DNA of 34,241 nucleotides from Candidatus Altimarinota bacterium (GTDB lineage Bacteria > Patescibacteriota > Gracilibacteria > BD1-5 > UBA6164): NCBI GenBank assembly GCA_030683605.1, contig JAUXPL010000016.1:1-34241 (forward strand), read 5' to 3'. The translations under genes were made by a program, and so were the position numbers. Position 1 is the stretch's first letter. Each line of letters opens with the position of its first letter. Under the pieces are notes generated by a model that was not told where the DNA came from, did no database searches, and saw nothing but the letters and a program-made list of their open reading frames with translations. Shown here piece by piece: positions 5,670 to 29,895 of the stretch.

Positions 5670-5799
5670 ACAAAAAAAAATTTAGTCACTCTATATTTCA
5701 ATGGATATGACCGTATTGTCTGAATACCCTCCATATAGATTTCTAAACTTTCTTATACATATATTATCATTTTATTTTGATTTGTCAAAAAAATTGATA
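5670..5799. other. Intergenic stretch before the insertion sequence
   Basis: 130 bases with no gene that I can support. It contains ordinary AT-rich sequence and a slightly more GC-balanced run (GGATATGACCGTATTGTCTG). The base immediately left of 5800 is the insertion boundary of the IS66 element. Confidence 0.5.
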
Positions 5800-5930
5800 G
5801 TAATCGCTCACACTAATAAAAGAAAATAAAATTTTGGCTTGACAGAATATTGTTAAAAATAAAAAGTATTGTTTAAATAAAGCCAAATAAACGATAATAA
5901 TGAATAGGATTTAACTTTCAAAAATACATT

Positions 5931-5967
5931 AAAAGAGTACTAAAAACATTAGTTTTTTAGTACTCTT
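5931..5967 (+). terminator. Terminator inside the IS, upstream of the transposase
   Basis: Stem AAAAGAGTACTAAAAA / TTTTTTAGTACTCTTTT with a six-base loop and a T-rich tail. Placed between the left inverted repeat and the transposase ATG, it would stop transcription entering from outside, a known protective feature of insertion sequences. A TTGACA box lies just left of it, near 5839. Confidence 0.75.
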
Positions 5968-6112
5968 TTTCTTTTTTAAAGTATATTCTTAATATTTGAA
6001 AATATCATATTGTATAATATAGTTATGGCTATTTTTAGCTATTTACATATATTATTTTTCAATATAATAATATATAAGAAATACTTAATTTTAGCTAAAA
6101 TATAATAAAAAA

Positions 6113-7651
6113 ATGTCTGAAATTTCAAAATTAAATCAAAGAATAAGAAATCTAGAAGTAACATATAATAATCAAAAAAATAGAGCACTAAAATTTGAAA
6201 AATTATATAAAGAAGAAAAACAATCTAATCTAGAAAAAAATGAAATAATAAAAAAATTAAAACAAGAAGTAGAAACTAATAAACATACAATCGAAGAATA
6301 TCAAAGAATGATTTTTCATAAAAAATCTAAAATTTTAGATAATAATACTGAACACAAAAGTATTTTTAATGAGGCAAAAAATATTAAAAGAACTAATGAA
6401 TCATATAAAAAAGCTATTCCAAAAAAAGAAGAAATAAGTCTTAGTTTTGAATATAATATTTCAAAATGTCCTGATTGTTGAAATATATTAACTAATAAAA
6501 AACAATATAAAAAATATATTGAAGATATTGATTCTTCTTTTGCTAGCCAGAAAGCAAACAAAACTATTATTGAAGAAATAATAGAGTCTTGATATTGTAA
6601 TAAATGTATGAAATATAAAAGTACTCAAAGTATTCCTAAATCACCAATAATATTTGGTGAAAATATCCGTATGTTTATAAATTTTCAATCAACAATACTT
6701 AGAATAAGTTATTCTATGATTCAAAATTTCTTTAAAATAGTACATTCTATAGAAATATCAGAAGGTGAAATTAGAAATATTCTTGCAAAAGAAGCTGAAA
6801 TAATTAGACCTGAATATGAAAGAATTCGTAAAGTAATAACATCTCAAAAATGAGTTCATTTTGATGAAACATGATGGTTAGTACAACAAGAAGAAGATTG
6901 AAACTATGCTTGGTGTATGACATGAACAGAAACGGAGGATGTTCTTTATGATATATGAATTAGTAGATGATGATGAGCAGTAAAAATGTTAGCTCAAAAT
7001 ATAAAAGAGAATGAAGATGATAGAAAAGATAGAAAAACAGAAGAAAAAATAGTAGAATTTGTTTGAATTTCTGACTGATATTGATGATATACTAATAAGT
7101 TTGAAAATCATCAATTATGTTGGGCTCATCCAGATAGAAAACTTAGAGAGTTAAGTGAATCTAAAAGTTTGGATAAAGAAAAACTTGAAAGATGTAAAAT
7201 AACTAGTAATGAATTTTCAAAACTTTACAAAGCAGTAAGAGATGAAATTAAAAAAGAGGATTTATTAGTTAAAAATAATAATCCTTCACCTGATGAACAA
7301 AGAATGGAGTTAAAAAATAGATTGATGAAAAAGTTTGAAAAGATAGTTACTATTAATAAAAATGACCCTAAAAAACTTGTAACCTACAAGAATACTTTAT
7401 CAAAATATAGAGAAAAATATTTTGTATGTATTTTGATGACTTGAATTCCTAGTGATAATAATAAAGCTGAAAGGAATTTAAGACATTTAGTTTTAAAAAG
7501 AAAGTTATGTAATTGATCTATAACTAAAAAATCTGCTAGTTATATGAGTATTAATTATTCTGTTTTACTTTCTCTTTATTGGAAAAATCCTGCTCAATTT
7601 TTTAGTAGATACAAATTAATTCGTGATCAATTTTTAAAAAATAGAAACTAA
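6113..7651 (+). CDS. tnpC: IS66-family transposase (TnpC)
   Basis: 512-residue DDE transposase. An N-terminal coiled coil (residues about 1-75) precedes a zinc-finger-like region with CPDCGNIL and GYCNKC, then the catalytic domain: HFDETGW (D251), SDGYGGYTN (D321) followed by LCWAHPDRKLREL, and PSDNNKAERNLRHL (E453) followed by KRKLCNGS, the IS66 signature order. It ends with a helical C-terminal part. Length matches stand-alone IS66 TnpC proteins (about 500). TGA-encoded glycines occur in conserved motifs, including the glycine after ET in the first motif. With both inverted repeats intact and no TAA/TAG interruption, the gene may still be active. Confidence 0.95.
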
Positions 7652-7696
7652 TTTTAGTTTCTATTTTGATTAGTGTGAGCGATTACTACAAATGTA

Positions 7697-7725
7697 TTTC
7701 AATAAATTACAATTTATAGTATAAT
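7697..7725 (+). promoter_or_regulatory. Promoter of dioxygenase-like gene
   Basis: TTTCAA (7697-7702), 17-base spacer, TATAAT (7720-7725), 28 bases before the ATG at 7754. It starts only 11 bases after the IS right end, so the insertion sits just outside it. Confidence 0.5.
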
Positions 7726-7753
7726 ATATTAATAATATATAACAAATAAACTT

Positions 7754-8518
7754 ATGTCACTTACACCATTAATATATGTAGATCATTGAAGTCCTATTAG
7801 GATTTTGGAAGATGATCCGATGAATGAGAAATTAGAGAAATTATGATTAGAATTAAAGGGGAATATTAAATCAGTTTTGATTGTATCTGCACATTTTATG
7901 AGAAATGGAAATTATGTAACTATTTTAGATAAACAAAAAACTATTTATGATTTTTATTGATTTCCTGATGAATTGTATGAAATAAAATATGAGCCAAAAG
8001 TTGATAAATTATTAGTAGATAACATATCAAATATTTTGTGAGATGTAGTAGAAACTACAGATTGGTGACTAGATCATTGAGCTTGGTCAGTATTAAAAAA
8101 ACTATTTCCAGAAGCTGATATCCCTGTTGTAGAACTAAGTATTAATACAAGAATTTGACTTCTTGATTATTATGAAATATGAAAAAAATTGTCGAAATTG
8201 AGACAAGACTGAGTATTAATAATTTGAAGTGGAAGTATAGTTCATAATCTAAGAGAAATAGATTATAATAAAAATATAGTTTATAAATGGGCACTAGATT
8301 TCGATAATTGTGTAAAAGAATATATTATGAAATGAGAATATGAAAAACTAATAAATTATCATCTGCTTCCAAATAATGATAGAGCATTTTATACTTCTGA
8401 ACATTATATTCCATTACTTTATGTACTCTGAGCCTCACAATCTTGAGAAAAACCTACTTATCTAAATAGCTGAATAACTAATTGATCACTTAGTAATAAT
8501 TTGATTGTTATAAAATAA
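7754..8518 (+). CDS. Extradiol dioxygenase-like protein (YgiD/LigB family)
   Basis: 254-residue class III extradiol dioxygenase-family protein, closest to E. coli YgiD (4,5-DOPA dioxygenase) and DODA. Metal-site motifs are in place: DHGSP (His at about residue 12), VSAHF (His about 53), DHGAWSVL (His about 113), and YTSEHYIPLL (His about 217). The length fits the family (about 260). Substrate cannot be told from sequence; in bacteria these enzymes open catechol rings, and a role in a reduced-genome organism is unclear. It is a single-gene transcription unit between the IS66 element and a terminator. Confidence 0.88.
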
Positions 8519-8551
8519 AAAAACAAAATTTAACATAATTTTGTTTTTTTT
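8518..8551 (+). terminator. Intrinsic terminator of the dioxygenase gene
   Basis: AAAACAAAATT stem, short loop, AATTTTGTTTT and a run of eight T. It overlaps the last base of the stop codon. Confidence 0.85.
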
Positions 8552-8618
8552 CTTAACTTTTTCTTACTTTTAGTTAATATAGTAAATGAAAACATTTTAA
8601 TATTTAAACTATAATGTA

Positions 8619-9650
8619 ATGAACAAAATCTCTAAAATTATAGTATCACAAATACTATTTTTTTTGTGCTTATCTAATATTTATGCATTTGATGCTAATT
8701 TGCAGATAGATAAAAAAGATATTGACATAAATGATTCAGTTAATTTAAGGATAGAAGTGAGTAGTGAGCAGTGATGACAAATATGAGTAAAAGAGATAAA
8801 ATGACTAGAAAATTTTGAAATTATTAATCAATCTCAATCACAATCAAGTGCTAGTAATGTTGTAATAGTGAACTGAAAAACTGAAACAAAAACTGAGAGT
8901 AAAATAAATCTAGATTTGTCTCTGAAAGCAAAAGTGAAATGAGATTTTGAAATATGACCTGCAATATTGAGTGATGGAAGTATGGAAGTAACTACAAATA
9001 CTGTAAAAGTAAATGTGACAGGTGATAATCTATATGTAAATAATAATCATATAAATATTAATAATAATCAAGCAAACACAAATAATGCAAATAACTGAAA
9101 TATAAATAATTCTAAACAAGATAAAGATTATATTTGAGACTATGAAAAAGTAGATAAAAAGAATTTCAATGATAATGCTAGTTTATATTTATTAATAGGA
9201 GTTATATTAATTATTACTATAATTATATATCTATCTTTAAAGAAAAATCCTGAATTAATTGATAAGTTAATAAATAAAAATGATGAAAATGAAGAATTAA
9301 GAAATACTGAAAAAAGTAATAAAAATAAAATAATAACTGAAACTCAGGAAAATAAAGTCGAAGAAAAAATAGTAGATAAAGAAAAAATACAAAACATAAC
9401 AAATATAGATTATCCTGAAAATATAGCCGAAAATTTCATCTCAAATATAAATAATATTTTCAAGCAAAAACTATCTCAAAAATATAATATTTGAAATATA
9501 GAAAATAAAACTTTTGAAGAAATATTATGATATGTAAATGATGAGAATATGGAGAATATTCAAGAAGTAATAAGTTTATTAAACAAAGCAAAATATTCTA
9601 ATATGTCAGCAGATAATGAAAAAATATTAGAATTAGTAAAAAAAATTTAA
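8619..9650 (+). CDS. batD: BatD-like membrane protein
   Basis: 343-residue BatD (oxygen tolerance, PF13584) type protein. A signal peptide (residues about 1-23, ending SNIYA-FD) is followed by an extracytoplasmic beta-rich domain with the BatD pattern: NDSVNLRIEVSS, VKEIKGLENFEIINQSQSQS, LKAKVKGDFEIGPAILSDGS. After an Asn-rich linker (about 145-170) comes one membrane helix (SLYLLIGVILIITIIIYLSL) and a charged cytoplasmic tail. In Bat operons BatD works with the VWA proteins BatA/BatB and a MoxR ATPase, probably in envelope assembly or stress tolerance. Here it leads the cluster rather than standing near the end, and is about half the length of large BatD proteins. A GC-rich palindrome separates it from moxR. 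Confidence 0.8.
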
Positions 9651-20247: not shown

Positions 20248-21906
20248 ATGAAACCTGAAATAAATGAAATACTGAATGAACTGTATGAAAATGATAAGTC
20301 ATTGAAGAATAAAGAAAAAGAATTGATAAATGTGATATCAAAAATGATGGAATCAAAACCTAATTCTAAAATTGATAATGATTTCAAAAATGATTTAAAA
20401 ATCAAAATTTTAAAACAAATAAATAATAAGAATACTATATTTTTTAATTTTAGTTCTTTGAAATATTTATTAACTTTTGTTTCTTGAATAGCTGTATTAT
20501 GATTATTTTTGAATATATATCCAAATTTATTTAAAAAAGGAAGTGATTTATTAATTCCAAATACAAATGATAAATCTATAAATTTATCATTTGCTCCAAA
20601 AATAGAAAAATTGGAAGAAGAAAATGCTTTTTGAGATTTAAAAATAGCTAATACAGATAATCAAATAACAAATAGAGAATTATCAGCAAAAGCTGTAGAT
20701 GCATGAGTGCCTCCAGAATCTATATCTAGTAGAAAGTTATGATGATCAATTAGCTCAGTAGGTCCAATGGTTTCTGAACCAAATATTTGATCTGCCCAAG
20801 TAATGTCTGAACCAACTTCTGATTCTAAAATTGCTATAATGCCTTATCCTGACTATAAACCAAAAACATATGTATATAATTTAAAATCATGAGAGTCTAT
20901 TCCTAAAATTCCATCTAATATGTATGTATATAAAAATAAAAATACAGATATAAAAACTAATAGTTCTAATCTAAGTAATATATTAAAAACTGATATTATA
21001 GATTTTAGTAAATTAAATAACTTATGATTATCATACCTAAGTATTTATGAAGATGAAAAAAATTGATATCAATTAGATGTTTCATTAATAGAAGGAAGTA
21101 TAAATATTTATAGAAATTATAGAAAATGGGATGAATTAGATTATGCTAATCAAAAACAGTTAACTATAAATGATATCCCTAGTGATGATAAAGTAATTAA
21201 AATAGTAAATGATTTCACTAAAAAATACTCTATAAATCTAGATTCATATTCTAAGCCAGTTGTAAATAATTCATGGAAAAAATACTATGAAATGTCTACA
21301 GATAAACAAAATTATTATATTCCAGATGTAGTAAGTGTTATTTATCAATTCAATGTAGATGGTATCTGAGTGTATGAAAGTTATGGTAATCCAATATGAC
21401 TAGAAACTACTGTAAATGTAAGAGATATGAAAGTGAATTCACTTTGACCTATTCAAAAAATGGATTTAAAATGAAGTAAATATGATTTGATAACTTCATC
21501 ATGAGAGATACTAGATATAGCTAAAAAATGACAAAATAATAATGTTTACATGGATGCAACAGTAAAAAATGAAGCATGAGTAAGTGAATGAAGTAGTGGA
21601 AGTGAATGAATAGTTGTTACTTGAGCTACATTAGATGCACCATCTAGCATGCCAGCACAAGCTCCAGTAGAACCTGAAGAAATAAATGTAGAAATCTGAA
21701 ATCCTCAAATAGTATATCTAAGACAATATATTTACAATGAACAAACACAAACATCTGAACAATATTTTGTACCTGGTATGAAATTCGATGTATTAACTCC
21801 AAGTGATGATACAAAAATGATTTATCCAGGAGAAACAGTGACAGTTCCATTAGTAAAAGATTTCTTGAATACTAATACAAATATAGTTTCGCCTATGGTT
21901 AGGTAA
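20248..21906 (+). CDS. Single-pass membrane protein, probable anti-sigma factor
   Basis: 552-residue protein. A short cytoplasmic N-terminal segment (about 70 residues, helical, charged) is followed by one membrane helix (SLKYLLTFVSGIAVLGLFLN, about residues 70-92) and a large extracytoplasmic part. The N-terminus lacks the HxxxCxxC zinc anti-sigma motif. The outer part contains two conserved-looking blocks (SYLSIYEDEKNGYQLDVSLI; YYIPDVVSVIYQFNVDGIGV) and a Gly/Ser/Glu low-complexity segment (NEAGVSEGSSGSEGIVVTGA) before a C-terminal domain with VYLRQYIYNEQTQTSEQYFV. Position just after an ECF sigma gene and the topology suggest sigma sequestration and signal sensing; this is inference. A palindromic element separates the pair. 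Confidence 0.75.
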
Positions 21907-21910
21907 GAAT

Positions 21911-21938
21911 AAAAAAAGAGTAAATACTCTTTTTTTTG
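21911..21938 (+). terminator. Intrinsic terminator after anti-sigma-like gene
   Basis: AAAAAAAGAGTA, loop AA, TACTCTTTTTTTT. A stem of the same sequence ends the helicase operon at 27378-27404. Confidence 0.88.
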
Positions 21939-22021
21939 TGGATTTTAAGAATAAATTTGCTTAATATTATAAATGTATTATACTATATTTGATTTTATTC
22001 CATAAATGGTATATTATTTAT

Positions 22022-22438
22022 ATGATAATTAAATATAACAATGATGAGGAAGTAGAAAATAAATTATTAAAATTATTTGAATATGTATGAGAAAAAGAAC
22101 ATCAATTACATATTTTACAAGTAATAGAACATATATTAAATAATAATTGAGCACCAAATCCTCCTAATGCTAAGCCGTTGAAATGACATGAATTATTTGA
22201 AATAAGAATTAAGTTTTGAAATGATTTGTATAGAATAAATTATTTTTTAGATGCACAAAATGATTTTATGGTTATATTAAATTGGTACAATAAACCTGAT
22301 TGAAGAAATGAATCATGATGATACAATAAATCAAAAAAGAAAAAATTGGATCAACAAATTCAGATGTATATTAGAGAAGCATTAGAATTAAGAGAAAAAT
22401 ATTTGTTAAATAAATGAAATTATGAGCTTTTCAATTAA
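22022..22438 (+). CDS. HigB-like toxin (RelE superfamily, Gp49-like)
   Basis: 138-residue protein of the phage Gp49-like/HigB family (PF05973). The core is AKPLKGHELFEIRIKFGNDL, then YRINYFLDAQNDFMVILNWY and NKPDGR..., matching the family's K-x-L-x-G-x-x-L-x-E-x-R-x-x-x-x-x-x-x-R-x-x-Y-x pattern, followed by a helical end (LDQQIQMYIREALELREKYL). Such toxins are ribosome-associated mRNA endonucleases. It comes before its antitoxin (higBA order), and the antitoxin start lies 17 bases inside it. It opens a five-gene operon. Glycines are mostly TGA, so the gene is adapted to this code. Confidence 0.9.
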
Positions 22439-23108
22439 TGATTTAAATAATCTGAAAATATCAGATGAATATAAAAACTATAAAGAAAATAATTATAGGT
22501 TTTTATTATTATGAGAAAAAATATATTCTAGAAGAAAAGATTTATGATTAACCCAAAATGAATTAAGAAAATTAGCTAGAATACCACAAAACAAAATCAG
22601 TGAATTAGAAAAATGAATATATTGAGAACCAAAGTATGAGCTGTTAACTAGATTATCAAATGCGTTGAATATGCCAATTGAGTATTTTTTGTTAGACAGT
22701 ATAAATAGAAAAACAGTTGAATTATATAATTATATATTTTCAAAACTAAAATGAGTTCCAAATATAATGCAATATATGAAACTACCTTTTTTTATTGATT
22801 TTGAAAAATATAAAGAAATTTGAAAAAAAATATCAAATCTAGAATATATTAGATGGCACTATTGACCTTTTGATCAAAAGGTATATGATTATCAAAAATT
22901 GTTTTCAGTTAATTTTGAATTATGATTTGATAATTTAACATATGTTTATCTTACTGAAGAAGAAAGATTGTTTATTGATAAAATTTTAAATAAATTACCA
23001 ATAAATGATTGAGATAAATTAAAAAAACTTTCATATGAAACAGAAATTATGCAAAAATTATGAGTTACATTATGAGACAATAAAAAAATGGGGGAATTTT
23101 TATTTTAG
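22422..23108 (+). CDS. HTH-Panacea domain antitoxin
   Basis: 228-residue protein with two parts. Residues about 30-90 form an XRE helix-turn-helix: GEKIYSRRKDLGLTQNELRK, LARIPQNKISELEKGIYGEP, LSNALNMPIEYFL. Residues about 100-228 match the Panacea (SocA-like, DUF4065, PF13274) domain: LYNYIFSKLKGVPNIMQYMK, LPFFIDFEKYKEIGKKISNL, EYIRWHYGPFDQKVYDYQKL. Panacea domains are known antitoxin modules that pair with many unrelated toxins; XRE-Panacea fusions also repress their own promoter. Overlap with the HigB-like toxin gene makes them a pair. Only 15 bases separate it from the first helicase gene. Confidence 0.88.
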
Positions 23109-23123
23109 TATTAATAACAAAAA

Positions 23124-24272
23124 ATGGCTATATTTAAATTTAACTATATATCATATGATAAAATATTAGAATCAGCAAAATGAAAAGATATGATTGATGC
23201 TATAGAACAACCATCTGATGAAAATTTGCTAGTAAATTGATTACCATGATGTTGAAAAAGTACTATAGCTGTTCATAGATTAGATAAGTTTAAAAATAAG
23301 AAATGAGGGTTGTTAACTTATTGAAAATTATTGACAGCTTATATCAAACTTTCACTTGAAAATGATTTATCTAAAAGTAAAGTTTTTTGATTTTGGAATT
23401 GGTTTTTTTTATATAGAAAAAAATATTGATTTGAAAAAAAAGATATAAAGGATATTAGTTGAGAAGATTTTAGAATTACTTTTCAAAGGATGTTAACTGA
23501 ACAATGAAAGTATGATTTTTTATTTGTTGATGAATGACAAGATTTACCAAAAGATTTATATATGCATTTATGATTAATAGCAAATCATATTTCTGTTTTT
23601 GCTGATGATGCTCAACAATTATATTGAGATAAAAATGCAAAGGTTGAAAATATTATAAATTGAATAGATCCTATTCAATATGAACTTAATGTTAATAGAA
23701 GAAATCCTAGATGATTATATGAATTTGCCTTAGCATTTAATCCTAATCATGTAGAAAAATGAAATTTAAAATTAATGACAAATAAAAGTGATCCTGTTGA
23801 GGTATATAAATGTATTAATTTTGTAAAAGAATATGATAAAATATTAAGTTTGATAGAAGAATTCGACTGAAAAAATATTGCTGTTTTATTTACAAAGATA
23901 GAAGCAGTTAATAAATTTTCATATTTATTAAATGAAGATAATGTTTTACATAGTGTTTATCATAATGAAATAAGTGATAATGAATTATATAATTTAAATA
24001 GTCCTATTGTTACAACCTTTCATTCTGTTAAATGATTAGAATTTGATATTGTAATTATTCCTTGATTATACCCAGATATAAGAAATTTACATATTACAGG
24101 AACTCATTACTATGTAGCGGCTACTAGAGCATCTGAAAAACTCATTATAACTCATCATAATTCAAATTCAGAAATAGAAGAAAAAATAAATAATATTGAT
24201 AAAAAATTATTTGAAGAATATGATTTAACAGAAGAAAATGATGATATTAATACAAATGATATACCTTTTTAA
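23124..24272 (+). CDS. Compact SF1 (UvrD/Rep-like) helicase, first of two
   Basis: 382-residue superfamily 1 helicase core without the usual 1B/2B insertions. Motif I GLPGCGKST is at 39-47 (three of the glycines are TGA), motif II LFVDEGQD at about 134-141 (DEGQ instead of DEAQ), motif III ISVFADDAQQLYG, motif IV-like ELNVNRRNP with an arginine, motif V TTFHSVKGLEFDIVIIPGL at 297, motif VI YVAATRASEKLII at 330. UvrD-like enzymes are normally 650-750 residues, so this is a minimal translocase. Gene order (after a HigB-Panacea pair, before a SAP protein and a second helicase) suggests a nucleic-acid-processing complex, probably in defence. Confidence 0.9.
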
Positions 24273-24291
24273 ATAATTATAAAAATATAAT

Positions 24292-25884
24292 ATGAAAAAC
24301 TATCAAGCAATGACAATTCAAGAGTTAAAGAATATTTGCGATTCTAAATGATTAAATTATAAAAAATCAATAAAAAAATTAGAAATTATAAATTTAATAG
24401 AAATGTCAGAATTAAAAAATAATGAAAAATTTAAAAAATATATTCAAATTTCTGAAAGAAATTTTAAATATTTTTTTACTAAATGATTTATTTTTCCTTT
24501 AAGATTGGTTGAAAATATTGAAGGTTTATGAGATGATATTTTTAAATTTTATTTGGATTATATACCTATTGTTTTAAAAAATATAGAATGAATAAACAAT
24601 GATATATTCATTGAACTTAAAGAAGACTTAGAAGAAAAATATTTTGAATTTAAGGAATGAATACTTTTATACAATTGATTAATCACATTATCAAAAATAA
24701 AATTCATATATATTTCAGATAAAGAAATATATGAGTCAGTTATTAATTCAAATTTTTCAACATTATATATACCAAAAGATATAATATATAATAAAAAAAT
24801 AGATTTAGAAAACACTCATATTAGTAAATGAGAATATATAAAAAATGATAAATTAGCATTAATTGAAGATGATTTTCATAAAAGAAATATTGAATTGTGA
24901 TGAAAACAGATGTTGAAACTAATAGATATAAATTTATATAATGATTTTATTTTCTCAAAAGATGTTGAAGAACTAAATTTGTTATATAATTATGAAGATG
25001 AAGTAAAAAATGAGAAGAATTATAATGATTATTTATTAATAGATTTTATAAAGAAAAATATTAGAGATAAGATTAGTTTCGATTGAAAGGAATCATTAAA
25101 CTCATTTTATGATTTTTTTTGAAAAACTATTAAAAACTTAATTGATCAATGAATATTAGATGTTAATTCTGAATGAATTGAAAAACTTAGATTTAAAGCA
25201 AAAAAAATAAAAGATACAATTGATAAAAGGATTACAATAAAAGAGTTATTAAATGAATTAAATGAAACAGAAGATTATTGAATTATAATATATTTATTAT
25301 TAAATAAATATTGAAAAATAGAAGAGTTAGCAAGTTTTATAGAATTGTGAATAAATTTTTTAAAGGACATAAAAATAAAGTTGTTATTATCATATTTATA
25401 TTGAGAAATAGTTTGATACAATTCATTATTTGTGGAAAAGGAAATATGATGAAGAAATATAAAATTTAAACTAGATATTACAGACGAATTAGATAATGAT
25501 ATTTATGAAAATAAAGCTGATAAAGATAAAATAATTAAATTACCAAAAATAATTAAATTAGATGAGTATTTTCAATTTGTTAATAATTTACTATATTGAA
25601 ATTCTAATTCTATAATATGAAATGAAGTTATTGTACCATATATTAAAAAAAATAATATTCAATGATATGGTGATTTAGAAAATGAAGTAAATAATTTAAA
25701 GAATGAAATTATTGAATTAAATAAGTTATTTAATTTAAAAAATAATGAACTTGAAGAAAAAAATAACTTAATTAAAGAATTAAAAAATAACTCTAAAAAG
25801 TTAGAACAAATTAAAACAATAATTAATGAAAATAATGAATTTAACTTATGAACAAAATGAAATAATCAATTGCAATTTTGATAA
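24292..25884 (+). CDS. SAP-like and coiled-coil protein of the helicase operon
   Basis: 530-residue protein I cannot assign as a whole. The N-terminus MKNYQAMTIQELKNICDSKG, then LNYKKSIKKLEIINLI, looks like a SAP/Rho-N type helix-extended-helix DNA- or RNA-binding motif (residues about 6-36). The centre is helical with no motif that I recognise (FFTKGFIFPLRLVENIEGLG; KGEYIKNDKLALIEDDFHKR). The C-terminal part (about 461-515) is a strong coiled coil: DLENEVNNLKNEIIELNKLF, NLKNNELEEKNNLIKELKNN. It ends GNNQLQFG. It is flanked by the two helicases, and the second helicase starts 50 bases inside its end, so translation is coupled. Likely the DNA-recognition or scaffolding part of the system (inference). 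Confidence 0.75.
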
Positions 25885-27370
25885 TATTTTACTTATAAAT
25901 GCATTTGCTGGAACTTGAAAAACAACAACTTTAGTAGAGTTTTGTAAGGCAAGACCTAATGATAAAATATTATATTTATGTTATAATAGATGATTAAAGG
26001 AAGAAGCTATAGAAAAATTTAAAGATTTAAATAATGTAAAAGTTTCAACAATACATTCAATTGCATATAACTCAATATGATTTAATTTTAAACAGAGACT
26101 TTGAAATTTAAGACCATATGATTTATCGATATATTATCAAAATAGTGCTATAAAATATTACTATGGATTTTATAGTTTATTAATTTTACATGATTTTTTA
26201 AATTCAAGTGATAATTTTAATTATTATATAAATGAATATTTACCTAAAAATATAGATAATTTATTAAAAGGTTACCCAAATAGAAATAATAATTTACTTA
26301 TAAATTGATTTAAAAAAATTTGGAATGATATTTTAAATTCAGAATCTATAAAGGTTGAACATGATGTGTATTTAAAGTTGTTTCAATTGAATAATCCCGA
26401 TTTGAATATTTACGACTATATATTAGTTGATGAAGCACAAGATGTAAATTTATGTATGCTAGATATTGTATTAAAACAAAAAACAAAAAAAGTATTTATT
26501 GGTGATTCTTTCCAACAAATTTATCAATGGAGATGAAGTAAAAATACTTTTAAATTATTAGAATCGGAGAAAGATAAAATTAATTTATCATTAACATGAA
26601 GTTTTAGATGTGCAAAAAATATAACTGATATTGCAAACAATTATTTAAAAGTATTGTGAGCTGATACAGTAATTGAATGATTAAATAAAAAAAGAACTAA
26701 TTTAGATAATGTAACAATAATATGAAGAACAAATGCTAGTATTATGAGATACACTATTGAGAATAAGTGAAGTATTTATTATGTATGATGATTTGATTCA
26801 TATAGTTATTGATTATTACTAGATATTAATTATTTATACTATAATGAAATTAATAAAATAAGTAATAGTTTTATTAAATTATTTACAAATCATAATGAAT
26901 TAGTTAAATATTCTACTGAATGAAGTGATATAGAAATAAAAAATATAATTAAATTATTTGAAGATATAATTTCTTGAAAAATAAATATAAATACTTATAG
27001 ATGAGTGGACGATATAGAACAATTAGTAAAATTACTAAAAAAAGAAGCGTCAATAGATTACTTATATTCTGATTATGCAATTACTACAGCTCATAAATCA
27101 AAATGATTAGAATGGCAAAATATTGTTTTATTAGATGATTTTATAAATGTTTCTTTTATGGATACAAATGATTTATTTTTATGTTTTAAGTTTATTTTTA
27201 ATAAAAATGATGTTAAAATTAAATTAAATTATTTAGAAGAATTATATCAAGAATTAAATATTTTATATGTAGCATCTACTAGAGCAAAACAAAAAATAAT
27301 TATAAATGATAAATATATTTTGAATCAACAATGTTTAAATTATATTTTGGAAAATATTATAACACTATAA
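25835..27370 (+). CDS. SF1 (UvrD-like) helicase, second of two
   Basis: 511-residue UvrD/Fbh1-like helicase. Q motif LTYEQNEII at residues 3-11, motif I NAFAGTGKTT at 22-31, Ia VSTIHSIAYNSI, motif II ILVDEAQDVN (D199, E200), motif III VFIGDSFQQIYQWRGS, motif IV LTGSFRCAKNI, motif V ITTAHKSKGLEWQNIVLLDD from 416, motif VI LYVASTRAKQKII (about 477). Start ATG at 25835 is chosen because it gives the Q motif at once; the next in-frame Met would remove it. The protein is a complete ATPase core with a moderate 1B/2B region. It is clearly different from the first helicase, so the two are not a recent duplication. Confidence 0.92.
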
Positions 27371-27377
27371 TATGTGT

Positions 27378-27404
27378 AAAAAAAGAGTAAGTACTCTTTT
27401 TTTT
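27378..27404 (+). terminator. Terminator of the helicase operon
   Basis: AAAAAAAGAGTA, loop AG, TACTCTTTTTTTT, eight bases after the stop codon. With the matching hairpin at 21911-21938, it brackets the five-gene block 22022-27370 between near-identical terminator stems. Confidence 0.88.
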
Positions 27405-27459
27405 GCTTTAAGTTTTTTTCTAAATATTATACAAGTATTAATTCACTAAATAAATAAAA

Positions 27460-28434
27460 ATGAATAAATCATTCTACAAACCTAATATTATTATTTCTAA
27501 ATGTTTGAATTTTGATCATTGTAGATTTAATGGTGATATGATAAATGATAATTTTTTGAAAAAACTTTGAGATTATGTGAATTATATTCCTGTTTGTCCA
27601 GAAGTTGCTATATGATTATGAACACCTAGAATGCCACTTCGTTTGGTAAATGTTGATAATGAAACTAGATTATTTCAACCGAGTAGTAAAACAGATTTAA
27701 CTGATGAGATGGATTATTTTTCTGAAAATTTTTTAAAAACTCAGAAGGAAATAGATTGATTTATAATGAAAAATCGTAGTCCTAGCTGTGGGATAAAGGA
27801 TGTAAAAGTCTATGATAAAGTAGATTCTTATAGTATTAATAATAAATATTCTAGTTGAATATTTGGAAATAAAATATATGAAATGTTTCCGAATATACCG
27901 ACAGAAGATGAATGAAGACTGAAAAATTTCAAACTTAGAGAAGAATTTTTGACTAAAATATTTTGTCTAGCAGAATTTAGAGAGATAAATAAGACAAAAA
28001 AAATATCAGATTTATCAGATTTCCAAGCGAAAAATAAATATTTATTTATGTTTTATTCACCATCGATTCAAGTATTGTTATGACAAATAGTTGCAAGTTA
28101 TAATAAAGAAAATTCTGCGGAAATATACAATTATTATTCTAAAGAACTAATTAAATTATTTAATACTACTACAAATATATGAAAAATGGTTAATACTCTA
28201 ACTCATATATTTTGATATTTTAAAGATACTTGTTCTAGTGAAGAAAAGGAGTTTTTCTTGGAAACAATAGATGTATATAGAGAGTGAAGAATCCCTACAA
28301 GCTCAGTAATAAGTATTATGAAAACATGGGCACTCAGAGATAAAAAAGAATACATATTAAAACAATCTATACTTAATCCATTTCCTAAAGAATTAGTAGA
28401 ACTAAGTTATAGTTGAAGGATTTTAGAATTATAA
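27460..28434 (+). CDS. DUF523-DUF1722 fusion protein (YbgA/TudS-like)
   Basis: 324-residue fusion. The N-terminal DUF523 domain has three conserved cysteines expected to hold an iron-sulphur cluster: C15 (IISKCL), C46 (YIPVCPEVAIGLGTPRMPLR) and C110 (KNRSPSCGIKDVKVYD). This domain is related to TudS thiouracil desulfurases. The C-terminal DUF1722 (YbgA) domain follows from about residue 190: FQAKNKYLFMFYSPSIQVLL ... KEEFFLETID ... YREGRIPTSSVISIMKTWAL ... LNPFPKELVEL. In E. coli, ybgA sits beside the photolyase gene phrB; the same adjacency holds here (eight bases apart), so a shared role around pyrimidine or DNA damage chemistry is plausible. Confidence 0.92.
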
Positions 28435-28442
28435 ATAATGTG

Positions 28443-29798
28443 ATGAATAAAAAATCGATTTTTTGGTTTAGGCAAGACTTAAGGACTTTTGATAATAATT
28501 GATTTATTAAATCAATAGAAAATAGTGATAGTATTTTCCCTATATTTATATTGGATAAAAATATTATTCCATGATTTTTATGATTGTCTGATAAAAAGTT
28601 TTTATTTCTAAAAGAAGCACTAATAAATCTAGATAATCAGCTAAAAAAACTATGATGAAAATTGACTATTTTTCATGATTATCCTGAAAATATAATTCCA
28701 GAAATATGTAAAAAATATGATATAAATACAATTTATGCAAATAAATCATATAGTAGATATGGTAAATCTAGAGATGAAAAAATAGAGAATTATTGTATGG
28801 AAAACAATATTACATTTATATTAGAAAATGATTATTTATTAAATGAGCCAAATGAAATAGAGCAAAGAAAAGTATTTACTCCTTATTTTAAACTCTGGAA
28901 AAAACAATTAATAGGTAAAGAAATAGTATTACAAGAAGCTAAACAATTTAATCAAATCAATAACCCCCATCCTAAGCTTCCCCCTTATCAAGGGGAAGGA
29001 ATAGAACATTTGTTAGATAAATTAATAAAATGATATAGACATCCATATTTTACTATAGATTTTTGAAAAGATAGACTTGAAAAATTTGATTTCAAGCATT
29101 ATGAATCATTTAGAAATGATCTGGATTTGGATGGTACTTCTAGATTATCTGTTTATTTGAGATTTGGTATTTTTTCTGTTAGGGAAGTCTATTTAAAGGT
29201 AAAAGATGAATCAGAAACATTTATAAGTGAACTTGCTTGGAGAGAATTTTGGCAGCATATTGATTATTATTTTCCATTTACTAAAAAATATGAATTTCAA
29301 GAAAATAAGAGACATATAAAATGGAAAAGCGATACAGAATTGTTTCAAAAATGGTGTGAATGAAAAACAGGTTATCCAGTAGTGGATGCTGCTATGAAGC
29401 AATTGTTAGAGACAAACTGGATGCATGGTAGAGCTCGTATGATTGTAGCTTCATTTCTCACTAAAGATTTGCTTATTGACTGGAGATTGTGAGAAGAATT
29501 TTTCAAAAAACATTTACTTGATTATGATGAAAATGTTAATTTTTGAAATTGGCAATGGTCAGCATCTGTTTGAGCTGATCCTAAACCACTTAGGATATTT
29601 AATCCATGTTTGCAATCAGAAAAATTTGATAAAAAAGCAAAATTTATTAGGAAATATTTGCCAGTTTTAGAAACAGCTGATATTAAAGCAATTCATAATC
29701 CCATAGATAATAAACTCGATTATATTGATATGATAGTAAATCATAATGAAGCTCAAAAAATTGCTCGTGAAATGTATAAAAATAAAACAGAAAACTAA
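28443..29798 (+). CDS. DNA photolyase/cryptochrome-family protein with small in-frame insertion
   Basis: 451-residue photolyase. The N-terminal alpha/beta domain begins [20 protein letters not shown]; the FAD-binding domain has [74 protein letters not shown] and [20 protein letters not shown], all class I CPD photolyase-type blocks with the Trp residues of the electron-transfer path. Residues about 174-188 ([20 protein letters not shown] region) come from a short GC-rich palindrome placed in frame in the linker between domains. Length is otherwise normal. Light-driven repair of UV pyrimidine dimers is the expected role. GTG at 28440 directly before the ATG is an alternative start. Confidence 0.95.
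28960..29001. repeat. Short GC-rich palindromic element inside the photolyase gene
   Basis: AATAACCCCCATCCTAAGCT-TCCCCCTTATCAAGGGGAAGG. The inner arms CCCCTTATCAAGGGG form a stem. It is half an element compared with the others and is read in frame without a stop. Confidence 0.75.
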
Positions 29799-29815
29799 TT
29801 AGTTTTCTGTTTTTT
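29785..29815 (+). terminator. Terminator of photolyase gene
   Basis: CAGAAAACTAATTAGTTTTCTG, perfect palindrome spanning the TAA stop, followed by TTTTT. Confidence 0.88.
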
Positions 29816-29867
29816 GTTAGAAATTATATGCCATAGCAAAGTATTTTGCAATAGAAATATATAGATA

Positions 29868-29895
29868 AAAGAGATAGGAATTATCCTATCTCTTT
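29868..29895 (-). terminator. Terminator-like hairpin between convergent genes
   Basis: AAAGAGATAGGA, loop ATTA, TCCTATCTCTTT. It lies downstream of the minus-strand lipoprotein gene and beyond the photolyase terminator, so it probably serves the minus strand. A second, weaker inverted repeat (AAAAGTTATTATTGATAACTTTT) is at 29934-29956, touching that gene's stop. Confidence 0.65.

What the first reader, a model, noticed from the sequence alone, without database searches (positions are those of the whole stretch)
22022..27370. Candidate new defence operon: HigB-Panacea pair plus two SF1 helicases and a SAP/coiled-coil protein
Five same-strand genes are packed with overlaps or short gaps (HigB/Panacea overlap 17 bases, then 15, 19 and a 50-base overlap) and closed by a terminator. 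A toxin with a Panacea antitoxin is coupled to two dissimilar UvrD-like helicases that flank a protein with a SAP-like N-terminus and long C-terminal coiled coil. I know no named system with this set: Gabija has one UvrD-like helicase with an OLD nuclease. No nuclease domain is visible, so the toxin may be the effector and the helicase-SAP complex the sensor of foreign or damaged DNA. Tight coupling and the near-identical terminator stems either side suggest it moves as a unit.
Basis: partly seen in the sequence, partly recalled or inferred. Interest (0 to 1): 0.85.

Follow-up and report, generated by a model that had tools for sequence, protein, structure and literature searches.

The report
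Mobile helicase–ADP-ribosyltransferase gene cassette
Five linked genes in an uncultured tiny bacterium, a toxin–antitoxin pair plus two DNA helicases flanking a protein with an ADP-ribosyltransferase-like domain, were shown to have moved into the chromosome as one block; they look like a new kind of anti-virus module, although no function has been tested.

Summary
The five genes are real, intact under genetic code 25, and at the stated coordinates. The 'SAP/coiled-coil' protein is misread. Its N-terminal 40 residues are only weakly SAP/HeH-like and are missing in one homolog. Its conserved part (residues ~49-165) is an ADP-ribosyltransferase (ART) fold domain: Pfam 2CompART matches all three homologs (best 4.6e-9), and every solved structure listed for its AlphaFold model is an ART (Tpt1, DarT and others). 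Helicase 2 is FBH1-like; helicase 1 is a small UvrD-like protein.

The helicase–ART–helicase trio occurs in three genera of one Gracilibacteria family and nowhere else searched, with HigB–Panacea in two genomes and without it in one. HigB–Panacea also occurs without the trio. Empty sites in relatives show that the five genes entered two genomes as one unit, at unrelated transcription terminators. A 28-29 bp or 75 bp terminator-bearing stretch flanks the block as a direct repeat; no recombinase is present.

UvrD-like helicase–DarT–ADP-ribosylglycohydrolase triads in four other places show that helicase–ART coupling recurs. Best reading: a mobile anti-invader module in which helicases deliver an ART to foreign nucleic acid. 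Catalysis and defence are untested.

The parts
21910..21938 (.). Left copy of the flanking direct repeat: terminator hairpin of the upstream gene (the target site)
   Evidence: Present once at the empty site in same-genus genome G406; sequence
22022..22438 (+). HigB/Gp49-type (RelE-superfamily) toxin, 138 aa
   Evidence: PF05973 E=1.3e-5; 87% identical in G391, dN/dS 0.13
22422..23108 (+). HTH + SocA/Panacea antitoxin, 228 aa
   Evidence: PF13274 E=5e-11 and HTH_3 E=2e-9; 81% identical in G391
23124..24272 (+). Helicase 1: small SF1 UvrD-like helicase, 382 aa, motifs intact (GLPGCGKST, DEGQD, TTFHSVKGLE, VAATRASEK)
   Evidence: UvrD_C E=5e-12; 72% and 48% identical in G391 and G409
24292..25884 (+). 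ART-domain protein, 530 aa: weak SAP/HeH-like N-terminus (1-40), ART fold (~49-165), helical middle, C-terminal coiled coil (~459-514)
   Evidence: PF22546 2CompART in all three homologs, best E 1.2e-7 whole protein and 4.6e-9 domain; AF2 domain model and structure search; full-length model low confidence
24436..24786 (+). The ART-fold domain itself (residues ~49-165)
   Evidence: Pfam domain 27.5 bits against a cut-off of 27; VIA Z 7.1 to Tpt1 (7yw4), 6.5 and 6.4 to DarT
25835..27370 (+). Helicase 2: FBH1-like SF1 helicase, 511 aa (ORF opens at 25826)
   Evidence: UvrD-helicase E=6e-15; F-box DNA helicase 1 (9xzj) E=6e-52; start by homology
27377..27405 (.). Right copy of the flanking direct repeat (terminator), one mismatch to the left copy
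21939..27376 (.). Inserted block: about 5.44 kb, exactly the five genes, absent from the empty site of G406
   Evidence: Window 20803-21938 and 27378-29869 align at ~90% to L036 (reverse strand) 5789-6921 and 6894-9360, overlapping by 28 bp

Best explanation
The block is a mobile conflict (anti-invader) module carried by Gracilibacteria. Its core is a complex or pathway of two SF1 helicases and an ART-fold protein. Helicase 1 and the FBH1-like helicase 2 load on foreign, replicating or damaged DNA and expose single strands; the middle protein, held there by its coiled coil and sometimes by an N-terminal HeH/SAP-like motif, transfers ADP-ribose (or does related NAD-dependent chemistry) onto that nucleic acid or a bound protein and stops replication. 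HigB-Panacea is a separable addiction or back-up toxin pair at the head of the operon that helps keep the block. Shown: gene content, conserved linkage, ART fold, intact helicase motifs, separability of HigB-Panacea, and insertion as one unit. Inferred: catalysis, nucleic-acid target, physical complex, defence role.
For: ART domain by two independent routes: PF22546 and structure (every row is an ART-superfamily protein, by my knowledge of those families). The trio is in identical order with a conserved ~50-bp ART/helicase 2 overlap in three genera, and the ART domain occurs in the class only there (3 of 353 genomes). A relative of helicase 1 elsewhere sits directly before a DarT ART and an ADP-ribosylglycohydrolase in an IMG/VR contig, and the same triad is in Shinella, Streptomyces and Rhodococcus plasmids. 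The block inserted as a unit in two lineages. HigB-Panacea pairs with type I restriction genes elsewhere in the family. ART toxins in phage defence are established (CmdTAC, PMC11618068; DarTG, PMC11543638 abstract). Panacea antitoxins pair with many toxins (PMC8832971).
Against: No catalytic residues could be mapped; the canonical ART glutamate is not obvious in the three sequences, so the domain may be Tpt1-like, a sensor or inactive. No ADP-ribose eraser or antitoxin for the ART is in the block, unlike DarTG and the DarT triads. No sequence-profile similarity to DarT was detectable. The trio is rare (three genomes), and its loci show no neighbouring known defence genes. FBH1- and UvrD-type helicases also serve repair and plasmid functions: helicase 2 homologs are common on conjugative plasmids, and the two read showed none of the other genes.
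Confidence: 0.45

Rival explanations
1. A mobile DNA or RNA repair module: FBH1-like helicase 2 clears RecA filaments, helicase 1 unwinds, and the ART-fold protein acts as a Tpt1/KptA-like end-processing enzyme or an NAD/ADP-ribose sensor; HigB-Panacea only stabilises the block.
For: Best structural match is tRNA 2'-phosphotransferase Tpt1; helicase 2 is closest to FBH1; a photolyase gene lies just downstream (28413-29798).
Against: The photolyase and TudS genes are also present at the empty site, so they are not part of the block. Mobility and toxin-antitoxin linkage fit conflict systems better. The comparable helicase-ART triads elsewhere carry DarT toxins with a glycohydrolase.
Confidence: 0.2
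2. A selfish addiction cassette: HigB-Panacea enforces retention and the trio serves replication or transfer of the element itself.
For: Precise insertion as a unit; helicase 2 relatives are common on conjugative plasmids; HigB-Panacea present in both proven insertions.
Against: No recombinase, relaxase or replication gene in the block. G409 keeps the trio without HigB-Panacea. Purifying selection on all genes.
Confidence: 0.15
3. HigB is the effector and the helicase/ART trio is a DNA-damage or foreign-DNA sensor that relieves Panacea.
For: Tight five-gene operon with HigB-Panacea first in two genomes.
Against: G409 keeps the trio without HigB-Panacea. HigB-Panacea occurs without the trio in G367, G369 and G403, and Panacea without an adjacent HigB in G406. 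The trio contains its own candidate effector.
Confidence: 0.1

Closest known systems
UvrD-like helicase – DarT – ADP-ribosylglycohydrolase triads (plasmids of Streptomyces, Rhodococcus, Shinella; IMG/VR contig L040)
   Same: A UvrD-like helicase directly upstream of, and overlapping, an ART gene; the helicase in L040 is a distant relative of helicase 1 (27% identity, E=2e-13)
   Different: The ART is DarT (PF14487), not 2CompART; the third gene is an ADP-ribosylglycohydrolase, not a second helicase; no coiled coil; no HigB-Panacea head
DarTG toxin-antitoxin / phage defence
   Same: ART fold; DarT is among the closest solved structures (Z about 6.5)
   Different: No DarG macro domain; no sequence-profile similarity to DarT; large protein with coiled coil and two helicases
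Gabija (GajA/GajB)
   Same: Both helicases hit GajB profiles as generic UvrD-like relatives
   Different: No OLD/TOPRIM nuclease GajA; two helicases plus an ART protein
PanAT toxin-antitoxin systems (Panacea antitoxins)
   Same: HTH plus Panacea antitoxin adjacent to a toxin gene
   Different: Coupled to variable cargo (ART trio or type I restriction)

Membership tests
ADP-ribosyltransferase superfamily (PF22546 2CompART) | Profile match above the curated cut-off | tested here: met
   Domain alone 27.5 bits against 27; best homolog 4.6e-9; full-length window protein just below (22.9 bits)
ADP-ribosyltransferase superfamily (PF22546 2CompART) | ART fold | tested here: met
   AF2 domain model (pLDDT 66, pTM 0.64) matches Tpt1, DarT, Scabin, pierisin and others; no non-ART row among those listed at Z of 2 or more; Z is 7.1 at best, so moderate
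ADP-ribosyltransferase superfamily (PF22546 2CompART) | Catalytic NAD-binding residues | not tested
   No coordinates were at hand for superposition; three sequences give conserved residues only
DarTG | DarT (PF14487) homology | tested here: not met
   No Pfam DarT match; hhalign to DarT sequences null
DarTG | DarG macro-domain antitoxin beside it | tested here: not met
   No macro domain among the neighbours scanned
Gabija | GajA OLD/TOPRIM nuclease beside GajB | tested here: not met
   No such gene; the middle protein has no nuclease match
HigB-Panacea type II toxin-antitoxin | RelE-superfamily toxin gene overlapping an HTH/Panacea antitoxin gene | tested here: met
   conserved pair in G391, G367, G369, G403
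HigB-Panacea type II toxin-antitoxin | Toxicity and neutralisation | not testable with these tools
   Needs expression assay
FBH1-like helicase (helicase 2) | Full-length helicase homology to FBH1 with intact SF1 motifs | tested here: met
   9xzj_F E=6e-52 over 2-482; motifs

The most novel reading that the evidence does not exclude
A new anti-invader system in which two SF1 helicases (one FBH1-like) guide an ADP-ribosyltransferase onto foreign nucleic acid, carried by a transposase-free cassette that inserts at host transcription terminators and leaves a copy of the terminator at each end.
Probability: 0.3. Interest if true: 0.85.

Novelty: new variant of a known kind. Interest (0 to 1): 0.62.

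Why it matters
It adds a candidate helicase-coupled ADP-ribosylation module, beside the helicase-DarT-glycohydrolase triads, and so suggests that coupling an ART to a DNA-unwinding engine is a general design. It also documents, with clean empty sites, movement of a five-gene block into ultra-small bacteria at unrelated terminators without any recombinase in the block, which raises a testable question about how such cassettes move.

Tried and rejected
PADLOC gives only generic UvrD/HTH cross-hits. Homologs of the ART protein were not found in phages, plasmids, IMG/VR or GTDB species beyond G391 and G409. PF22546 in 287 phylum genomes gave only sub-threshold hits, not pursued. The AF2 model of the whole ART protein was unusable (pLDDT 48.5). 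hhalign of the ART domain to DarT was null. The literature library held no paper describing 2CompART or this set, and two papers from memory that may define the family are not held. I considered SAP/coiled-coil sensor as the main identity and dropped it because the SAP region is weak and absent in G409. I considered that the repeated terminator was a chance likeness and rejected it on the empty sites. I considered a transposon-type target duplication; the two lengths (28-29 and 75 bp) argue against a transposase. A Gp49-like domain at the N-terminus of a UvrD-like protein in L041 was only E=0.11 and is not claimed.

Full report
OBSERVATION. The window is contig C42 of a 1.54-Mb Gracilibacteria-type genome that reads TGA as glycine. 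The start of helicase 2 is best placed at 25835 from its homologs, which gives the 50-base overlap. All genes evolve under purifying selection between the window and the relative G391 (dN/dS 0.13-0.49), and most TGA codons align to glycine.

WHAT THE GENES ARE. Gene 1 is a HigB/Gp49 toxin and gene 2 an HTH-Panacea antitoxin. Gene 3 is a small UvrD-like SF1 helicase and gene 5 a second, different one whose best solved relative is F-box DNA helicase 1 (FBH1; E=6e-52 over its length). Gene 4 is the surprise. Its SAP-like start is weak (E=0.08; HeH-like phage tails 3e-4) and is replaced in homolog G409. Residues ~50-165 match Pfam 2CompART, an ADP-ribosyltransferase domain: E=1e-4 in the window protein, 1.2e-7 in the best whole homolog, and 4.6e-9 for the best domain alone; all three homologs match. 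An AlphaFold2 model of that domain (pLDDT 66, pTM 0.64) matches tRNA 2'-phosphotransferase Tpt1 (Z 7.1), DarT from several species (Z about 6-6.5) and other ART toxins; no row listed at Z of 2 or more is a non-ART protein. Z below 8 is only moderate, and the catalytic residues were not mapped, so fold is supported and activity is not shown.

DISTRIBUTION. The whole five-gene set occurs in G391, another genus of the same family, split across two contigs at helicase 1. The trio alone, in the same order, occurs in G409, a third genus. Profiles of the ART domain find nothing else in 353 genomes of the class, and searches of the phylum, GTDB species, IMG/VR, phages and plasmids add none. The HigB-Panacea pair is separable. 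Panacea relatives lie in four other genomes of the family: behind type I restriction genes in G367 (HsdM-HsdS-x-HigB-Panacea) and G406 (HsdR-Panacea, without adjacent HigB), beside a MazF-like toxin and an NYN gene in G369, and with HigB in G403. The genes have different histories: helicase 2 of G391 is 83% identical to G409 but 67% to the window, while helicase 1 and the ART protein of G391 are nearer the window.

MOBILITY. In G406, same genus and ~90% identical flanks, the site is empty: window 20803-21938 and 27378-29869 align to adjoining sequence that overlaps by 28 bp, the terminator hairpin of the upstream gene. In the window that hairpin stands on both sides of the block. In G391 the block sits at an unrelated place, and a 75-bp stretch (the end of the upstream gene plus its terminator) is repeated on both sides, fused in frame to the end of helicase 2; congeners G392, G390 and G389 have the empty site with one copy. 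So the five genes entered two genomes as one unit, at different terminators, each time leaving a copy of a terminator-bearing stretch at both ends. No recombinase is in the block. The unequal repeat lengths speak against a transposase; insertion at a staggered break or by recombination of a circle are possibilities I could not test.

COMPARISON. A search with helicase 1 led to an IMG/VR contig in which a relative (27% identity, E=2e-13) overlaps a DarT gene (PF14487 E=7e-22) followed by an ADP-ribosylglycohydrolase (E=1e-40). The same triad stands in Shinella, Streptomyces and Rhodococcus plasmids. This is a parallel, not homology of the ARTs: profile comparison of the two ART domains was null. 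It makes a helicase-ART partnership a recurring design. Gabija is excluded by the lack of GajA, and DarTG by the lack of DarT homology and DarG.

MECHANISM AND VERDICT. Most likely the helicases open and travel along invading or stressed DNA and the ART protein acts there, with HigB-Panacea as an addiction or back-up pair (confidence 0.45). The absence of an ADP-ribose eraser, the rarity of the trio and the unmapped active site are the main weaknesses. I rate it a new variant of a known kind: ART-based conflict modules are known; this helicase-ART-helicase set and its terminator-duplicating insertion appear undescribed in the sources I could search.

Noticed in passing
L040:7350-11216, L044:4598-8426, L045:4640-8450, L046:2521-6421: A recurring three-gene cassette, UvrD-like helicase – DarT – ADP-ribosylglycohydrolase, in an IMG/VR contig and three plasmids of different bacteria; in L040 it lies among restriction genes.
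   Followed up: partly
L020, L021 (G391) against L022 (G409) and window: The block is mosaic: helicase 2 of G391 is 83% identical to G409 while its helicase 1 and ART protein are 44-48% identical to G409.
   Followed up: partly
L020:12397-12477 (G391 C104 end): Helicase 1 of G391 carries an in-frame TAA close to a contig end where the assembly breaks; a sequencing or assembly fault or a strain with a broken gene.
   Followed up: no
L069, L068 (G367, G406): The HigB-Panacea pair, or Panacea alone, stands at the end of type I restriction operons, as if it were an addiction tag for defence genes in this family.
   Followed up: partly
L023:603-4096 (G404), L024, L025 (G312, G326): Other small UvrD-like helicases in Gracilibacteria sit in different uncharacterised operons, one with a phosphoribosyltransferase-like protein (sub-threshold match) and a SLOG-like (by eye) protein.
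   Followed up: no
L011:972-7029 (Streptomyces fungicidicus p1): A relative of helicase 1 follows a helicase-related protein and a DrmB-family protein, suggesting a DISARM-like locus with an extra small helicase.
   Followed up: no
L075 (G412 C4:29388-34702): A ~1.6 kb gene of the thiamine-diphosphate enzyme type (by eye) is present twice in tandem with identical scores.
   Followed up: no
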